Shown piece after piece: positions 1-51,502 of a stretch of 64,000 nucleotides of DNA. Within the stretch, counting starts at the first letter, position 1. Each line of letters opens with the position of its first letter. The DNA comes from Phormidium willei BDU 130791. GTDB lineage: Bacteria; Cyanobacteriota; Cyanobacteriia; Cyanobacteriales; Geitlerinemataceae. Location: NCBI GenBank assembly GCA_001637315.1, contig LSZA01000001.1, forward strand, positions 62,001 through 126,000, given 5' to 3'. The notes beneath the pieces are model-generated. The model was not told the origin of the DNA and did no database searches. It worked only from the letters and a program-made list of their open reading frames with translations. Position numbers and translations under genes: made by a program.

Positions 1-416
1 GGAACTGGGAACGGGTCCAAACCGAGTTTCCAAGATATCCAGGATATCTTCGCGACGACTGGTTAACACTCCGGCTGAGACTCCGGCTTCTTGAGCGAAA
101 CGCTCTAGGGGGGTGATATAAGGCATTTTTTCCTCCTCCTCAAAGGCGGCAATTTCAGTGTTAAACGATGACTCCAACTCTTCCGGGAGAGTCATGATCC
201 AGTTGACCAGTCGGAAGAGTTCCAGAATATTTTGACGGCTATAGCCCCGACGGTAGAGGCTTTTAGTTACCTCCAGCTTCCATTGTAGTCGTTGGTTGGG
301 CTGCTGTCGGGTGGCTTGGGTTTTCAAATGGGCCATCACCATCACCGCAAAGGGGTTCACATCCTCTTGTAGCTGGTCCCACTGGTCTTGATACGTGAAT
401 AGGTCGGGAGCTTGAT
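1..416 (-). pseudogene. C-terminal part of an Rpn/PD-(D/E)XK-type nuclease gene, split by an IS
   Basis: This is the downstream half of a gene whose N-terminal half lies at 1811-2258. The intervening DNA is a tnpB element. Joining 416 to 1811 restores one open frame reading KLL-HQAPDLFTYQDQW, so the two parts were one gene. The product belongs to the large cyanobacterial family annotated as Rpn recombination-promoting nuclease/putative transposase. The visible part includes the usual NPFAVMVMAHLK segment and a C-terminal stretch containing ILDILETRFG. The gene runs off the left edge of the window, so its true C-terminus is not visible. It is probably inactive as it stands, unless the element excises precisely. 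Confidence 0.75.
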
Positions 417-598
417 AGCCCTGCTGCTTTAGCGCGGGGTGGAAAAGCGACTCGTGCGGCTTTAGCCGCCGTCAGCTTCTTAATCCTGTCTATCCAATCT
501 TCGATTAGTTGAGTCATCGTTTTGCGCTTCTGCTTGGCAACCCGTCTCAGCTTCTCAAGTCGTCCTGTCTCAATCCTGACACTTAATCTTAATTTCAT
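263..598 (-). CDS. Small ribbon-helix-helix-like protein of the IS element, reading out of the left end
   Basis: The N-terminus (KLRLSVRIETGRLEKLRR, then TMTQLIEDWIDRIKK) has the strand-helix-helix pattern of CopG/Arc-type DNA-binding proteins. Only about the first 60 codons lie inside the element. The remaining ~50 residues are translated from the interrupted nuclease gene in another frame and are surely not native. It is divergent from tnpB, with 45 bp between the two starts. Short proteins of this kind accompany tnpB in several cyanobacterial elements and may control its expression, but that role is inferred here. The readout tail arose from the insertion. Confidence 0.55.
   Translation of the reverse strand: MKLRLSVRIETGRLEKLRRVAKQKRKTMTQLIEDWIDRIKKLTAAKAARVAFPPRAKAAGLSSSRPIHVSRPVGPATRGCEPLCGDGDGPFENPSHPTAAQPTTTMEAGGN
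456..469. repeat. Left-end hairpin of the IS element
   Basis: GCGGCT and AGCCGC form a perfect 6-bp stem with a two-base loop, 40 bp inside the left boundary. Subterminal hairpins are the recognition elements of IS200/IS605 ends. Confidence 0.6.
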
Positions 599-643
599 GG
601 GACTGGCTACCCACTGGCTACCTCAATCGGCTATTATAATAGC

Positions 644-1768
644 ATGAAGACGCTCAAGTTCAAGCTGTACAACCACAAGCGAAATCATCACCTGAAGTGC
701 ATCGTTAATGCCTCGGGAACGATTTACAACCACTGTATTGCGTTGCATCGTCGGTACTATCGGATGTGGGGCAAACACTTGAACTGCTCCAAGCTCCAGA
801 AGCATATTGCTAAGCTCAGAAAACGTAATCCTTCCTGGAAAACCGTTGACGCTCAAGCAGTGCAAGACATCTGCCAGCGTATCGAAAAAGCGTATCAGTT
901 GTTTTTTAAGCACAGAGACAAAGGGGTTCGTCCTCCTGGGTTTAAAAAAGTCAAAAAGTACAAATCGTTTACTCTCAAACAGAACAACTACAAGTTTCTC
1001 GGTGAAAACCGGGTGAAGATCTGCGGTCGAGTGTATCAGTTCTGGAAGTCCAGAGAAATTGAGGGGAAAATCAAAACGGTGACAGTTAAACGGACTCCAT
1101 TGGGAGAGATGTGTATGTTCGTCACGGTAGACGCTCCTTCGGAGCCGACTGTCAAAGTCGAGACGGGTAAAAGCGCTGGCTTTGACTTCGGACTGAAAAT
1201 GTTTCTCACGACCTCTGAAGGCTTCAGTATTGACGCCCCGCTGTTTTTTAAGCAATCTCTCCGTGAGATTCAGAAGGCGAACCGAGAACTGTCCCGCAAA
1301 CAGAAAAGCTCGAACAAGCGAGAACGCGCTCGAAAGAACCTAGTTCGTCGCCACGAAGACATTGTTCATCGGCGAGAGGACTGGTTCTGGAAACTAGCTC
1401 ACTGGCTGACCGATCGGTTTGACGTTCTCTATTTCGAGACGTTGAACCTAAAAGCCATGCAGCGACTCTGGGGACGCAAAGTCTCTGACTTAGGATTTCG
1501 GTCGTTCCTGAAAATCTTGGAATGGGTCGCTCAAAAGAAAGGAAAAGTCGTTGCCTACATCGACCGTTGGTTTCCATCCAGTAAGACCTGCTCGGGCTGT
1601 GGGTATGTTTTGGACGAGTTGGATTTGAGCGTGAGACGGTGGCGCTGCCCGTCTTGTGGGTCGAAAAACGACCGTGACGAAAACGCCGCCATCAATATCA
1701 AACAGGTTGGGGCATCAACCTGTGGGCGAGGTAAAGTCAGTCAGGCTCAGCCTGCATTTACTGTTTGA
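644..1768 (+). CDS. tnpB: TnpB, IS-encoded RNA-guided nuclease
   Basis: At 374 aa it has the usual length of TnpB. The RuvC-like acidic residues are all visible: Asp181 in AGFDFGLKMF, Glu265 in LYFETLNLK, and the Asp of NDRDENAAIN near residue 343-345. A four-cysteine zinc finger lies between the last two (C316, C319, C335, C338). An N-terminal helix-turn-helix region with many basic residues precedes the nuclease core. TnpB proteins use an RNA made from the 3' end of the element to cut DNA next to the target motif, which favours retention of the element. The protein looks intact and probably active. A TATAAT at 635-640 lies directly upstream of the ATG, so the transcript may have almost no leader. 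Confidence 0.9.
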   Translation: MKTLKFKLYNHKRNHHLKCIVNASGTIYNHCIALHRRYYRMWGKHLNCSKLQKHIAKLRKRNPSWKTVDAQAVQDICQRIEKAYQLFFKHRDKGVRPPGFKKVKKYKSFTLKQNNYKFLGENRVKICGRVYQFWKSREIEGKIKTVTVKRTPLGEMCMFVTVDAPSEPTVKVETGKSAGFDFGLKMFLTTSEGFSIDAPLFFKQSLREIQKANRELSRKQKSSNKRERARKNLVRRHEDIVHRREDWFWKLAHWLTDRFDVLYFETLNLKAMQRLWGRKVSDLGFRSFLKILEWVAQKKGKVVAYIDRWFPSSKTCSGCGYVLDELDLSVRRWRCPSCGSKNDRDENAAINIKQVGASTCGRGKVSQAQPAFTV

Positions 1769-1826
1769 CCCCAGAATCCCCGTCGCGTGATTCGCGGGGA
1801 GTTTGTCAATGTAAGAGTTTGACGCT
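1660..1826 (+). ncRNA. Putative omega (right-end) RNA of the tnpB element
   Basis: In characterised TnpB systems the guide RNA scaffold overlaps the 3' end of tnpB and runs to the right end, with about 16 nt of flanking host DNA as guide. By analogy the guide would be the host sequence from 1811 (GTAAGAGTTTGACGCT). This lies directly after TTGAT in the restored empty site, so the RNA would direct cutting of the excised donor locus. The scaffold start is an estimate, not visible in the sequence. Confidence 0.35.
1777..1800. repeat. Right-end hairpin of the IS element
   Basis: TCCCCG and CGGGGA form a 6-bp stem around a 12-base loop that itself contains CG/CG pairing. It lies 10 bp inside the right boundary and after the tnpB stop codon, the usual place for the right-end recognition hairpin and for the omega RNA terminal stem. 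Confidence 0.6.
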
Positions 1827-2258: not shown

Positions 2259-2370
2259 GGGTTGATGTGATGTTGCACCTGCTCTAATGATAATTCTAAA
2301 GCTTCGGCAATTTGGGCTGGAGTTAGGTGGAAACTGATAAGTTTGGCGATCGAGTATCGTGAGGTTGGTC
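2255..2370 (-). pseudogene. Remnant of the 3' end of another Rpn/DUF2887-type gene
   Basis: A short open stretch with no start codon encodes IAKLISFHLTPAQIAEALEL followed by SLEQVQHHINP and a stop. This helix-turn-helix-like tail resembles the C-terminal ends of Rpn-type proteins, such as the EDIAQLLDVSVEEVQRLL tail at 32758. It lies between the DUF3352 gene and the split nuclease, sharing ATGA with the latter. It is best read as a decayed neighbour, but a short real peptide cannot be excluded. Confidence 0.45.
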
Positions 2371-2391
2371 ACTCCGAAAGGTCTTCTCTCT

Positions 2392-4320
2392 CTAGTGTCG
2401 CGAATGAGAGAGGACAAGGCGAATATCGAGTTGTTCTCTCTCTTCGTCAATGGACAGGCTTAAACTCAAACTGCGGAGAGATTGGAGAAACTCAAAGAAG
2501 GGATCGGTGGGTTGTTCCTCCCCCTCCACGGGAGTCATTCCGTTAAACTCCGCCATCGGAGACCGCCACAAGTCGCGAGTTGCGGCAACGATCGCCCCGA
2601 GGTTGTAATAGGCCAAACTGGTTCGGTTGTCGGGGAAGGGGGCGATCGCCGTCTGGAAGTTATAACTATCCAATAGGCGAACTCGTGGCTGGGGATACAG
2701 ACGGTTCACCGATGCCATTCCCGTCGTCAGTAATAGGGTATCCTCCGTAATCCAGCCATGGGCCACTTGACTGAGGGTTTCATCCTCAAATCCCATGGGG
2801 AGATTCCAACTGGTGAAGGGCTGATTCTCCAGGGATTCTCTAGAAATTTCGATAAACCCCTCACTAATGTTGAGAATCCAGCTATCCAGGGCAGATAAGA
2901 CCCGTTCAGCGGCGGGGCGATCGCCGGTTTCGAGATACAGACCAATATCAAAGGGAAGAAAGGGGAATAACGCATTCTGACTCCCGCCAATGGGAGGATA
3001 GAGAAACAAGGCAAACTCCCCATCCATCCATTGCAACAGGTCTTGCAGTTCCAAACCTAAGGCCTGACGAATCTCCCCCCGAACCCCATCGAGAACCGAA
3101 GCGATTTCAGGAATCTCCTCCACCGTAGAGACGAGAGTCAACAGAGACTGGCCCAAATTGATACCATTGGTGGCAACATAGGTTCCTCCCGGAAGTCGGG
3201 AGAGGAGACGATTGGGGTTTTGGTAACGAACTGCCATCGACCGTTGAGGGTCCCGGTAATCGCTGCGAAATTGCAACCGTCCGCCGGCTTCATCGGCCCA
3301 AATCAGGGCGTTAAAACTCAGATAGGTTTGACCATAGAGATCTGCCACGTCCGATAAGCCTGATCCACTGGGGAGAGGAGGGAATCCTGGTGGTGATTGA
3401 GTTTCCACCTGGCGGCTGAGTTGGGCAAGTTGTTTAAAGTTCCCATAGGTTCCCACCACGGCGTTGCTGAAGTCGGGATGAGACAGCAGTTTCTGAAATT
3501 CAGGATTCTCAGCCAGGGGAACTGCTAAACTCGCCATATCCAGATAGCTTTGGATATCCTCGCGACTCGGGGCCACCACCACTAGATTATTGGGGAGACG
3601 GGCGATCGCCACACTGGGTTTAACGATCGCAGTTTGGGGAAACTCGAACTCTGGCGGGAAATTGGAGTCCTCAACCCCCTCTCCCTGCTTGATCGCTGTC
3701 AAAACCTGTTTGAGGGGGTGAGACAGGTGGCTGAGAGACTTGTTTAGGGAGGGATTGCTGGGGGAAACCTCCCCGTCATCCTGCCACATTTCGGGAGAGG
3801 GAGGAGTTGGCATGGGATCGGGGGCCATCTCCACCTGGGGAAACACCTGAATGGGGATGTCGTTGTAGGTTTCCTGACTCGCAGATGTGCCGTAGTCAAC
3901 TTCTAAGCGAGTGAGATAGTCCGCGAAGGCGTTCTCATCCGATACGGGCATCAAGGTGACCGTTGCGGCTGCTGTTTCTGTCTCAATCGAGGATAGCGGA
4001 ATCACTGCTGTGGCACTCCAATCGTCAATCCAGGGGTCTAGGATTTCCCCCTCTTGGAGAGTGACAACAGGGAGAAAGGGCAACAATCCCGGGTCGTTGA
4101 AGACTTCAACGATGGAATCGAGGGCCTCGAAACGGTTAAAGGAATCCCAGGCTTGGGGGCGATTCAGTAGCAGAACCAGGGCTGCATTAGCGGGGAGATG
4201 CTGAGTGACTTCGGGGGGGGCGATCGCCTGTTCGGGCCTGTCCTCGGTTTGGGCCGATAGGGGTGATATACCCAAAACAGTGGAGAGGAGAACGGTCAGG
4301 GTCAGGTAACGCTTTACCAT
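2392..4320 (-). CDS. DUF3352 domain-containing exported protein
   Basis: The 642-aa product begins MVKRYLTLTVLLSTVLGISPLSAQT, a clear signal peptide. An upstream in-frame extension of 50 codons would bury this signal, so the later ATG is chosen. The mature part matches the cyanobacterial DUF3352 family: it opens with APPEVTQHLPANAALVLLLN and continues with repeated blocks of the type AIARLPNNLVVVAPSREDIQ and GGTYVATNGINLGQS. A proline/serine-rich insert of about 50 residues sits near residue 190-240. The function of the family is unknown; location is probably the periplasm or thylakoid lumen. It is a single gene, separated from its upstream neighbour by a bidirectional terminator. Confidence 0.75.
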   Translation of the reverse strand: MVKRYLTLTVLLSTVLGISPLSAQTEDRPEQAIAPPEVTQHLPANAALVLLLNRPQAWDSFNRFEALDSIVEVFNDPGLLPFLPVVTLQEGEILDPWIDDWSATAVIPLSSIETETAAATVTLMPVSDENAFADYLTRLEVDYGTSASQETYNDIPIQVFPQVEMAPDPMPTPPSPEMWQDDGEVSPSNPSLNKSLSHLSHPLKQVLTAIKQGEGVEDSNFPPEFEFPQTAIVKPSVAIARLPNNLVVVAPSREDIQSYLDMASLAVPLAENPEFQKLLSHPDFSNAVVGTYGNFKQLAQLSRQVETQSPPGFPPLPSGSGLSDVADLYGQTYLSFNALIWADEAGGRLQFRSDYRDPQRSMAVRYQNPNRLLSRLPGGTYVATNGINLGQSLLTLVSTVEEIPEIASVLDGVRGEIRQALGLELQDLLQWMDGEFALFLYPPIGGSQNALFPFLPFDIGLYLETGDRPAAERVLSALDSWILNISEGFIEISRESLENQPFTSWNLPMGFEDETLSQVAHGWITEDTLLLTTGMASVNRLYPQPRVRLLDSYNFQTAIAPFPDNRTSLAYYNLGAIVAATRDLWRSPMAEFNGMTPVEGEEQPTDPFFEFLQSLRSLSLSLSIDEEREQLDIRLVLSHSRH

Positions 4321-7706: not shown

Positions 7707-10142
7707 CTAACTCCGTAGTTCTACCTTGAACTTCTTGACGATCGCCTCCCGTACCTTCTGATGAGCGGTATCGACCTCCTTATCTTTAAGGGTGCGATCG
7801 CCGGCCCGATAAACTAGACGAAACGCCAAACTACGCTGACCCTCCGGAACCGACTCACCGCGATACTCATCGAATAGTTCCACCGACTCCAACAATTTCC
7901 CCCCAGCCCGACTCATGGCTTTTTCTAACTCCAAGACTTCTGCATCAATGGGAGCGAAAAAGGCTAAATCGCGATCGCTGGCCGGGAACGTCGAAAAGGG
8001 GTTGAACTTAGGAACCTGACTTGATGGGAGCGCTTCTAGGAGTAGACTTAACTCCAACTCGAAGACATAGACTTCATCGGGGAGTTCGCGATCTTGACGC
8101 AACTGGGGATGAAGCTGGCCAAAGCGTCCCAATTGACGACCCCGCAACCAAATCGAGGCGGTGCGTCCAGGATGCAATCGTTCATCTCCTGCATCAGCTT
8201 GATAGTAAACCGTTAAGCCTAGGCGATCGAACACCCCTTGTAACACCCCCTTGGCTTCAAACCAAGACATCGGTTGTTCCTTCCCAGACCGTAACCAACG
8301 TCCCTGAGTACGATCGCCCCCAAGAATCCCCGCCACCAGGTTTTTCTCCTGGTACGTCTCTCCCTCTTTCCAGAAAACTCGCCCAATCTCAAAGCCATTG
8401 AGCGCCCCATTTCCCTGTTTCAAGTTATACTCAAAGGCGTCAATCATCCCTGGGAGAAGTTCCGTTCGTAGGGCGGAATACTCAGCAAAAAGGGGATTTC
8501 CCAGACAAATTTGTTGCTCTTGGGTGGGTTTGACCAGAGAATAGTGAATTAACTCCGTCAAACCTGCCCCCCGTAGGGCTTCCCGCAACTGTCCCGTCAG
8601 GGCAAATTCCGGGGAAAGTTGGCCCAGCGTTCCCTGTTTGGGCAGGGTTTCGCAGAAGTTATCGTAGCCATAGAGACGAGCGATTTCTTCAATTAAATCA
8701 ATTTCCCGTTCAATATCCCGGCGACGGTAAGGGGGAACCTGCACTGTCCAAACTCCTGTTTCCTCCGTGGGAGCGACGCTAAAGTTGAGGCGTTCCAGGA
8801 TTTGCTTCATATCCGCTTCCGGGAGGTCGCCCACCTCATCCCCGAGATGCACTGGACCGAGAACCTGACGCACCCGGGCCACTCGTAGCGTGAGCGTTTG
8901 AGACAAATCGGGGCGAGAATCGGCCTTGGCTTGGGCCACCGGAGTTCCGCCCGCTAATTCGCCGATAAGGGCGATCGCCCGTTGACAGGCGGTTTCTAAC
9001 TCGGCGAAGTTTACCCCCCGTTCATAGCGTGAGGAAGACTCGCTACGGAGATTCTGAGCGCGAGAGGAACGACGCACGGCGACGGGGTCAAATAGGGCCG
9101 CTTCTAAGACTAAATTAGTGGTCTCTGCATGGACTTCGCTGTCTTCCCCGCCCATGACGCCAGCTAGGGCCACGGGATGGTCATTGGCGGTAATCAGTAG
9201 ATTAGTGTCTTGCAGGGGTCGTTCCTGGCCATCGAGGCTGGTCAGGGTTTCATTAGTTTTGGCGTAACGAACCCCGATGGTTAGGGAATCTTGACCGGTG
9301 AGCTGTTGTAGGCGATCGCGGTCAAAAGCGTGCAACGGCTGTCCCCATTCCAACATCACATAGTTGGTAATATCCACCACATTGTTAATGGGGCGCACGC
9401 CAGCCGCTTGTAGTCGTTGTTGTAGCCAATCCGGCGAAGGGGCGATCGTGACTCCTTCAATCATCGTGCCAATATAGGCCGGACAAGCCTTGTTTTGAGC
9501 CACCTCAACCGTTAGAGACTCCTTCGGGGCAATCTCAGCCACCTCAGCCTGGGGTAATTCCAGCCTATCCCCCGTTAACGCCGCGACTTCCCGGGCCACG
9601 CCCACCATACTCAGAGCATCGGCTCGGTTCGCCGTCGCCGTCAAGTCTAAAATCGAGTCATCGAGTCCCAGAAACGGTCGCGCATCGGCACCAATTTTGC
9701 CCTGGAACTGGTTATCATTGCCCTCGGCAAAAATATGAATGCCATCAATTTCGGAAGTTAGGCCCACTTCCTCAAGAGAGCAAATCATGCCGTTAGAGGG
9801 AACCCCCCGCAGTTTGGTCGGTTTAATCTTGAGACCCACTTGGGGCAGCTTCGTGCCGATGGTAGCCACCGGAACGTAGATATTTGCCTGAGCATTGGGC
9901 GCACCACAGACAATCTGTTGCGGTTCACCGCTGCCAATATCGACTTGACACACCCGCAGCTTATCGGCGTTGGGATGTGGCTCGATACCCACAATGTGAC
10001 CGATCACCACCCCATCGGCCCAGGTGCTGCGCTCTTCAATCTCCTCCACTTCAAACCCCGCCATAGTGAGGCGATGGGCCAGGTCGTCCGCAGTTAGATC
10101 AATGTTAATGAGGGTTCGCAACCAGTTGAGTGAGATACGCAC
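7707..10142 (-). CDS. pheT: Phenylalanine-tRNA ligase beta subunit
   Basis: It charges tRNA-Phe as the beta chain of the alpha2-beta2 enzyme. The 811-aa length fits bacterial PheT. In order: the N-terminal [12 protein letters not shown] segment, the EMAP-type tRNA-binding domain (about 40-150, with [16 protein letters not shown]), the B3/B4 editing domain (about 215-390, with [20 protein letters not shown]), the B5 domain (about 410-510, with [20 protein letters not shown]), the synthetase-like core, and the C-terminal anticodon-binding FDX-ACB domain (about 715-811, with [10 protein letters not shown]). pheS is not in the window. The start is the ATG at MRISLNW, as is usual for the family. 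Confidence 0.96.
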
Positions 10143-51183: not shown

Positions 51184-51502
51184 GTGTCCCCGGCCAGGGG
51201 CCGTCGCTGGGATGACTCGGAGCCGACCCCCCCTAGGACATAGCTGAGAAAATTTTGCAATTACTTGGGCGATCGCCTTGACGGAAATGGGAATTTGGGA
51301 CAAACTTAGTAAAAGTAAACGTGCGTAGCTCAACAATTGTTAAGTTACGCAAAGCCTTGGATCGTAACAAAGCAATTTATTAAGATTTTATTCGAGAGCG
51401 ACTGAGTTCAGAGGCTCCCGCTAGTGTTACATCGCTGTTGGGAGAGGTTCTGGCTATCGACCTCAAGGCATCTATCGTCCCCCTCGTGGTTCCCCGGAGC
51501 TT
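51184..51502 (+). other. Leader/promoter region of the DUF2997-ycf35-ferredoxin genes
   Basis: This 319-bp region holds a near-perfect palindrome (51323-51350) and no gene. A possible transcript start lies downstream of the palindrome, giving a leader of over 100 nt. Confidence 0.4.
51323..51350. promoter_or_regulatory. 28-bp palindrome upstream of the ycf35 cluster
   Basis: GCGTAGCTCAACAA faces TTGTTAAGTTACGC; 12 of 14 positions pair. No T run follows, and it is over 120 bp from any stop codon, so an operator is more likely than a terminator. Confidence 0.5.

What the first reader, a model, noticed from the sequence alone, without database searches (positions are those of the whole stretch)
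417..1810. tnpB element inserted without scar in an Rpn-type nuclease gene; exact empty site can be reconstructed
Joining TTGAT (412-416) to 1811 restores one reading frame through ...KLL-HQAPDLF..., which fixes both ends to the base. The element has tnpB and an RHH-like gene but no tnpA. The predicted guide (host bases after the right end) lies next to TTGAT in the empty site, so TnpB would cut exactly the locus left after excision.
Basis: partly seen in the sequence, partly recalled or inferred. Interest (0 to 1): 0.6.

Follow-up and report, generated by a model that had tools for sequence, protein, structure and literature searches.

The report
TnpB element with ribbon-helix-helix partner gene
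A small mobile DNA element carrying an RNA-guided DNA-cutting enzyme (TnpB) sits inside a cyanobacterial gene; relatives with the gene intact show its true ends lie 22 bases and 1 base away from those proposed, and a small DNA-binding gene it carries is repeatedly paired with TnpB genes across cyanobacteria, which looks like an unreported control module.

Summary
The insertion is real; the stated ends are not. Five intact alleles of the host gene in four sister genomes read ...CTTGATAC|TG(T/C)AAGAG... without a scar. This fixes the element at 395-1809 (1,415 bp), not 417-1810.

The target and presumptive TAM is ATAC (391-394), not TTGAT. ATAC obeys the IS608 guide rule with ATAG (415-418); 46 of 46 related left ends fit that rule. 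The right end is GAAT...TCAA, as in IS608. So this is an IS608-type IS200/IS605 derivative without tnpA, with an intact TnpB catalytic triad and a covarying omega-RNA.

With corrected coordinates the homing idea stands: the guide (from 1810) abuts ATAC in the empty site. Nearly identical flanks in otherwise diverged genomes fit transfer by homologous repair, but do not prove TnpB did it.

The unexpected part is the ribbon-helix-helix gene: under purifying selection, head-to-head with tnpB, and by my count paired with TnpBs of at least six lineages at 61 or more of about 85 loci, in the place of tnpA. This resembles the Arc regulators divergent from cas12k in type V-K CASTs. I found no report of it in the papers searched.

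The parts
395..1809 (+). whole element, 1415 bp, no target-site duplication
   Evidence: five empty alleles join 394|1810
391..394 (+). target / left cleavage site and presumptive TAM, ATAC
   Evidence: pairs with the left guide by the IS608 rule; 46 of 46 left ends fit
   Evidence: rule from PMC5934647
418..440 (+). left-end hairpin (imperfect palindrome)
   Evidence: DNA fold (not unusual against shuffles, z -0.6) and conservation among copies
263..598 (-). RHH ORF; conserved core 479-598; frame runs through the left end into host DNA after loss of the usual stop
607..623 (.). candidate operator: direct repeat CTACCCA / CTACC spaced 11 bp; a perfect 14-bp palindrome GCTATTATAATAGC follows at 630-643
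   Evidence: motif built from the same regions, absent in about half of the pairs
644..1768 (+). tnpB, 374 aa, D181/E265/D345 and four zinc-finger cysteines intact
1676..1809 (+). omega-RNA scaffold (inferred RNA)
   Evidence: 34-pair consensus, 19 pairs with compensatory change
1774..1777 (+). right guide tetranucleotide GAAT
   Evidence: as in IS608; invariant in 27 copies
1806..1809 (+). right cleavage site TCAA, last bases of the element
   Evidence: as in IS608; invariant in 27 copies; junction
1810..1825 (+). host bases presumed to be the guide of the omega-RNA
   Evidence: inference by analogy with ISDra2 (PMC8612924)
1810..2258 (-). host gene, 5' part (N-terminal half)
   Evidence: homologous to the intact alleles
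1..394 (-). host gene, 3' part, continuing beyond the window start

Best explanation
The element (395-1809) is a non-autonomous, IS608-type member of the IS200/IS605 superfamily. Shown by sequence: exact ends, no target duplication, target ATAC, guide/target pairing of the Y1-transposase type, a TnpB with intact catalytic residues, a covarying right-end RNA, and a maintained RHH gene head-to-head with tnpB. Inferred: a Y1 TnpA supplied in trans excises and inserts it as single-stranded DNA; TnpB with an omega-RNA whose guide starts at 1810 cuts the restored ATAC|TGTAAGAG allele, so that repair from an occupied chromosome copies the element back or into empty alleles; the RHH protein binds the 45-bp intergenic region and represses tnpB and itself, limiting nuclease cost.
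For: Five empty alleles; 46 of 46 left ends fit the guide rule, shuffled maximum 32; GAAT/TCAA right end invariant in 27 copies; TnpB family match and catalytic residues; RNA covariation; RHH dN/dS 0.04-0.12; head-to-head tnpB at 60 of 88 RHH loci by a local model, more by NCBIfam, and no TnpA detected; nearly identical flanks around the element between diverged genomes.
Against: No transposase of a matching type was found in this incomplete genome. Cleavage, RNA and repression are untested. The identical tract could come from recombination without TnpB. The candidate operator is missing from about half of the pairs. The window's RHH lost its usual stop, so this copy may be impaired.
Confidence: 0.75

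Rival explanations
1. One reading: an ISDra2-type element at 417-1810 inserted next to TTGAT (412-416), with TTGAT as TAM.
For: TTGAT is the ISDra2 target (PMC8612924); the frame is open across 416|1811.
Against: Five intact alleles join 394|1810; TTGAT lies inside the left end and recurs there in other copies; the guide rule calls for ATAC.
Confidence: 0.02
2. The RHH protein is not a repressor of tnpB but a transposition accessory or replacement for TnpA functions, for example binding the left end or recruiting a TnpA in trans.
For: It occupies the tnpA position and lies next to the left-end region; no TnpA was detected at 88 RHH loci (the model had two seeds).
Against: Head-to-head spacing, mostly 15-65 nt, and a recurring intergenic motif favour transcriptional control; at cas12k in the same arrangement the RHH genes are predicted repressors and the MerR-type CvkR is a demonstrated one (PMC9938897). 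An RHH fold has no known nuclease activity (general knowledge).
Confidence: 0.2
3. The shared insertion in G000, G009 and G010 spread by ordinary homologous recombination or common descent; TnpB homing played no part and the element is now inert.
For: Recombination tracts of similar identity occur without such elements: one stretch near window 51346-51446 reaches 0.99 between G000 and G009. No TnpA in cis; single full copy in this genome.
Against: In the G000-G010 pair all 600-bp windows at or above 0.99 start next to the element; tnpB and RHH are under purifying selection across copies.
Confidence: 0.4

Closest known systems
IS608 (ISHp608), IS200/IS605 family
   Same: Cleavage-site/guide pairing at both ends, right end GAAT...TCAA, no target duplication (PMC5934647)
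   Different: Target ATAC instead of TTAC with matching guide change; no tnpA; an RHH gene in the tnpA position
ISDra2 and its TnpB
   Same: TnpB homologous over most of its length (E about 8e-48), right-end RNA, homing logic (PMC8612924)
   Different: Target is ATAC, not TTGAT; no tnpA; RHH partner
IS1341-type tnpB-only elements
   Same: tnpB with end sequences and no transposase (PMC9956272)
   Different: Carries a second, maintained gene (RHH) that those descriptions do not include
Arc_1/Arc_2 and CvkR regulators of type V-K CASTs
   Same: Small Arc-like RHH genes (53-72 aa) upstream of and divergent from an RNA-guided effector gene in cyanobacteria (PMC9938897)
   Different: Partner is tnpB, not cas12k; homology of the RHH proteins to Arc_1/Arc_2 was not tested; that paper's main text does not mention TnpB

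Membership tests
IS200/IS605 (IS608-type ends) | no target-site duplication, insertion 3' of a fixed tetranucleotide | tested here: met
   394|1810 junction in five empty alleles
IS200/IS605 (IS608-type ends) | guide tetranucleotides at the hairpin feet pair with both cleavage sites | tested here: met
   46 of 46 left ends; right GAAT/TCAA
IS200/IS605 (IS608-type ends) | own Y1 transposase (tnpA) | tested here: not met
   none in the element; one full and one partial Y1 match in the genome, the full one beside another type of tnpB. The family includes tnpB-only members (PMC8612924)
TnpB RNA-guided nuclease | family match and RuvC D/E/D residues | tested here: met
   226 bits against guided_TnpB, cut-off 100; D181, E265, D345
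TnpB RNA-guided nuclease | omega-RNA at the right end that guides cutting next to the TAM | tested here: inconclusive
   conserved RNA structure met; expression and cutting not testable here
ISDra2-type (TTGAT target) | insertion 3' of TTGAT | tested here: not met
   the base before the element is C394 of ATAC; TTGAT 388-392 lies two bases further left and is not shared by other copies
RHH (CopG/Arc/DUF6364-like) | match to a curated family model above its cut-off | tested here: inconclusive
   DUF6364 E 7e-5 but 23.6 bits against a cut-off of 27.3
V-K CAST Arc_1/Arc_2 regulators | homology to Arc_1/Arc_2 and a cas12k neighbour | not tested
   only the arrangement was compared (PMC9938897)
Rpn / PD-(D/E)XK nuclease (host gene) | match to a family model | tested here: not met
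   no meaningful Pfam or NCBIfam match for the intact allele; a distant fold match is not excluded

The most novel reading that the evidence does not exclude
RHH-tnpB head-to-head pairs are a widespread, undescribed regulatory module of tnpA-less TnpB elements in cyanobacteria: a small RHH repressor takes the place of tnpA, is exchanged among unrelated TnpB lineages, and may be the forerunner of the Arc regulators next to cas12k in type V-K CASTs.
Probability: 0.4. Interest if true: 0.68.

Novelty: new variant of a known kind. Interest (0 to 1): 0.5.

Why it matters
It gives a base-exact natural case (occupied and empty alleles of one gene in sister species) for testing TnpB homing with the right TAM. 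It also points to a recurrent partner gene that could explain how tnpA-less TnpB elements keep their nuclease under control and how the regulator at cas12k arose.

Tried and rejected
Rfam search for a known RNA: only a chance CRISPR repeat match, E 0.59. A tnpA of matching type in the genome: none found. RHH as a chance ORF: rejected by dN/dS and by recurrence. RHH-linked TnpBs as inactivated, TldR-like: not supported, since D/E/D aligns intact in 35 of 47 and most of the rest are divergent lineages where my alignment is unreliable. A single-sequence fold of the right-end RNA is not unusual (z -1.6); only the alignment shows the structure.

Full report
Observation. The window holds an intact tnpB at 644-1768 and an RHH-like ORF on the other strand whose conserved core is 479-598. 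The host gene, on the minus strand, is interrupted. I searched the held genomes of the same family for the uninterrupted protein and for the DNA. Five alleles uninterrupted at this site turned up, in G007, G008, G012 (two copies) and G011. All read ...CTTGATAC|TG(T/C)AAGAGTTTGAC..., joining window 394 to 1810 with nothing added or lost. The element is therefore 395-1809. The bases flanking the joint differ from the element's end bases, so the ends are unambiguous. The same insertion, at the same base, is present in G009 and G010; public contigs with the same sequence come from Phormidium sp. SL48-SHIP and Geitlerinema sp. P-1104.

Ends and target. Copies in other genomes share the left end from ATAC on and end in GTCAA. 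In IS608 the four bases at the cleavage site pair with a four-base guide at the foot of the end hairpin (left TTAC with AAAG, right TCAA with GAAT; PMC5934647). I tabulated 46 left ends, chosen by eye and checked to occur verbatim in their loci. Five target/guide classes appear: TTAC/AAAG, ATAC/ATAG, ACAC/GTAG, TGAC/CAAG, TCAC/GAAG. The first two bases pair antiparallel in 46 of 46, the full four-base rule holds in 44, and shuffled pairings gave a mean of 20.6 and at most 32 in 100,000 trials. Picking by eye may favour agreement, but five classes agreeing is hard to get that way. In the window the guide is ATAG (415-418), which calls for ATAC (391-394). TTGAT at 412-416 overlaps the guide and is not the target. 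The right end has GAAT (1774-1777) and TCAA (1806-1809), invariant in 27 copies.

TnpB and RNA. TnpB scores 226 bits against guided_TnpB (cut-off 100), aligns with solved ISDra2-type TnpB at about 8e-48 and keeps D181, E265, D345 and four zinc-finger cysteines. The last 134 bases of the element form a consensus RNA of 34 pairs, 19 of them with compensatory change in 27 sequences; 96.9% of cells pair against 81% in shuffles and 33-48% when slid. Part of this stretch is also coding. In ISDra2 the last 16 nt or so of the RNA come from host DNA beyond the right end (PMC8612924); by analogy the guide here starts at 1810. In the five empty alleles the first guide bases stand directly next to ATAC, differing only at one T/C position. 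Cleavage itself is inferred.

Spread of the insertion. G000, G009 and G010 are well diverged: over the stretches compared, 600-bp windows outside the element have median identity 0.866 (G000-G010) and 0.900 (G000-G009). Around the element G000 and G010 are nearly identical: 0 differences in 206-394, 2 in the element, 6 in 1810-2847, and ordinary divergence beyond both limits. All ten windows at or above 0.99 in that pair start at 1846-2296, next to the element. In G009 the identical tract is shorter on the right (to 1917) and cut by its contig end on the left. This is the pattern expected when an occupied allele is copied into an empty one with its flanks, as after a TnpB cut, but recombination without TnpB would leave the same mark.

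The RHH gene. Over 40 codons dN/dS between copies is 0.04-0.12, like TnpB's. A profile found it in 88 of 291 genomes and 54 of 121 genera of the order. I fetched the best-scoring loci, not a random sample. Of 88 loci with a detected RHH (a few are duplicates), 60 have a tnpB head-to-head within 600 nt by a local model, mostly with 15-65 nt between starts, and none a TnpA (the TnpA model had only two seeds). Three more are TnpB by NCBIfam (L086, L154, L158) and L173 resembles them; after removing duplicates I count at least 61 of about 85, in about 24 genera (hand count). The partner TnpBs share from 94% down to about 15% identity with the window's and, by eye, fall into at least six groups, so the RHH gene has been joined to several TnpB lineages. 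A direct repeat, CTACCCA-nTGG-CTACC(C), stands between the two genes in the window and recurs in some pairs of two other lineages; I built the motif from these same regions, and about half of the pairs lack it. In the window the RHH frame lost its usual stop through what looks like a 1-nt deletion relative to L065 and L066, so its product may be longer than usual.

Comparison with the known. The nearest parallel found is in type V-K CASTs, where small Arc-like RHH genes or the MerR-type repressor CvkR lie upstream of cas12k in reverse orientation (PMC9938897). That paper's main text does not mention TnpB. Six paper searches gave no report of RHH-tnpB pairs, but subscription journals are largely not held. 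By its ends the element belongs with IS608-type IS200/IS605 elements; by gene content it is tnpA-less like IS1341, with an added gene. I rate it a new variant of a known kind.

Noticed in passing
L116, about 8186-10085 (G011): The orthologous host gene in G011 is interrupted independently, roughly 70 bp from the window's site, by a different IS605-type element with divergent tnpA and tnpB. The gene may be a dispensable landing place.
   Followed up: partly
L090, about 130-475 (G009); also L081, L088: Short elements with the same kind of left and right ends but too little room for tnpB (L090 about 0.3 kb), i.e. MITE-like derivatives.
   Followed up: no
own genome G000: 22 tnpB matches from many lineages but only one full and one partial Y1 TnpA match.
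   Followed up: partly
window 2346-2469: A 124-bp stretch that recurs near the element in relatives (93% at a second place in L091), beginning a shared ORF start MTKRENNSIFALSSL.
   Followed up: no
RHH loci without a tnpB, e.g. L187, L190, L203: The RHH gene also occurs with no detectable tnpB next to it; solitary genes, remnants or another partner.
   Followed up: no
window 630-643: A perfect 14-bp palindrome GCTATTATAATAGC directly before the tnpB start, shared with L065.
   Followed up: partly
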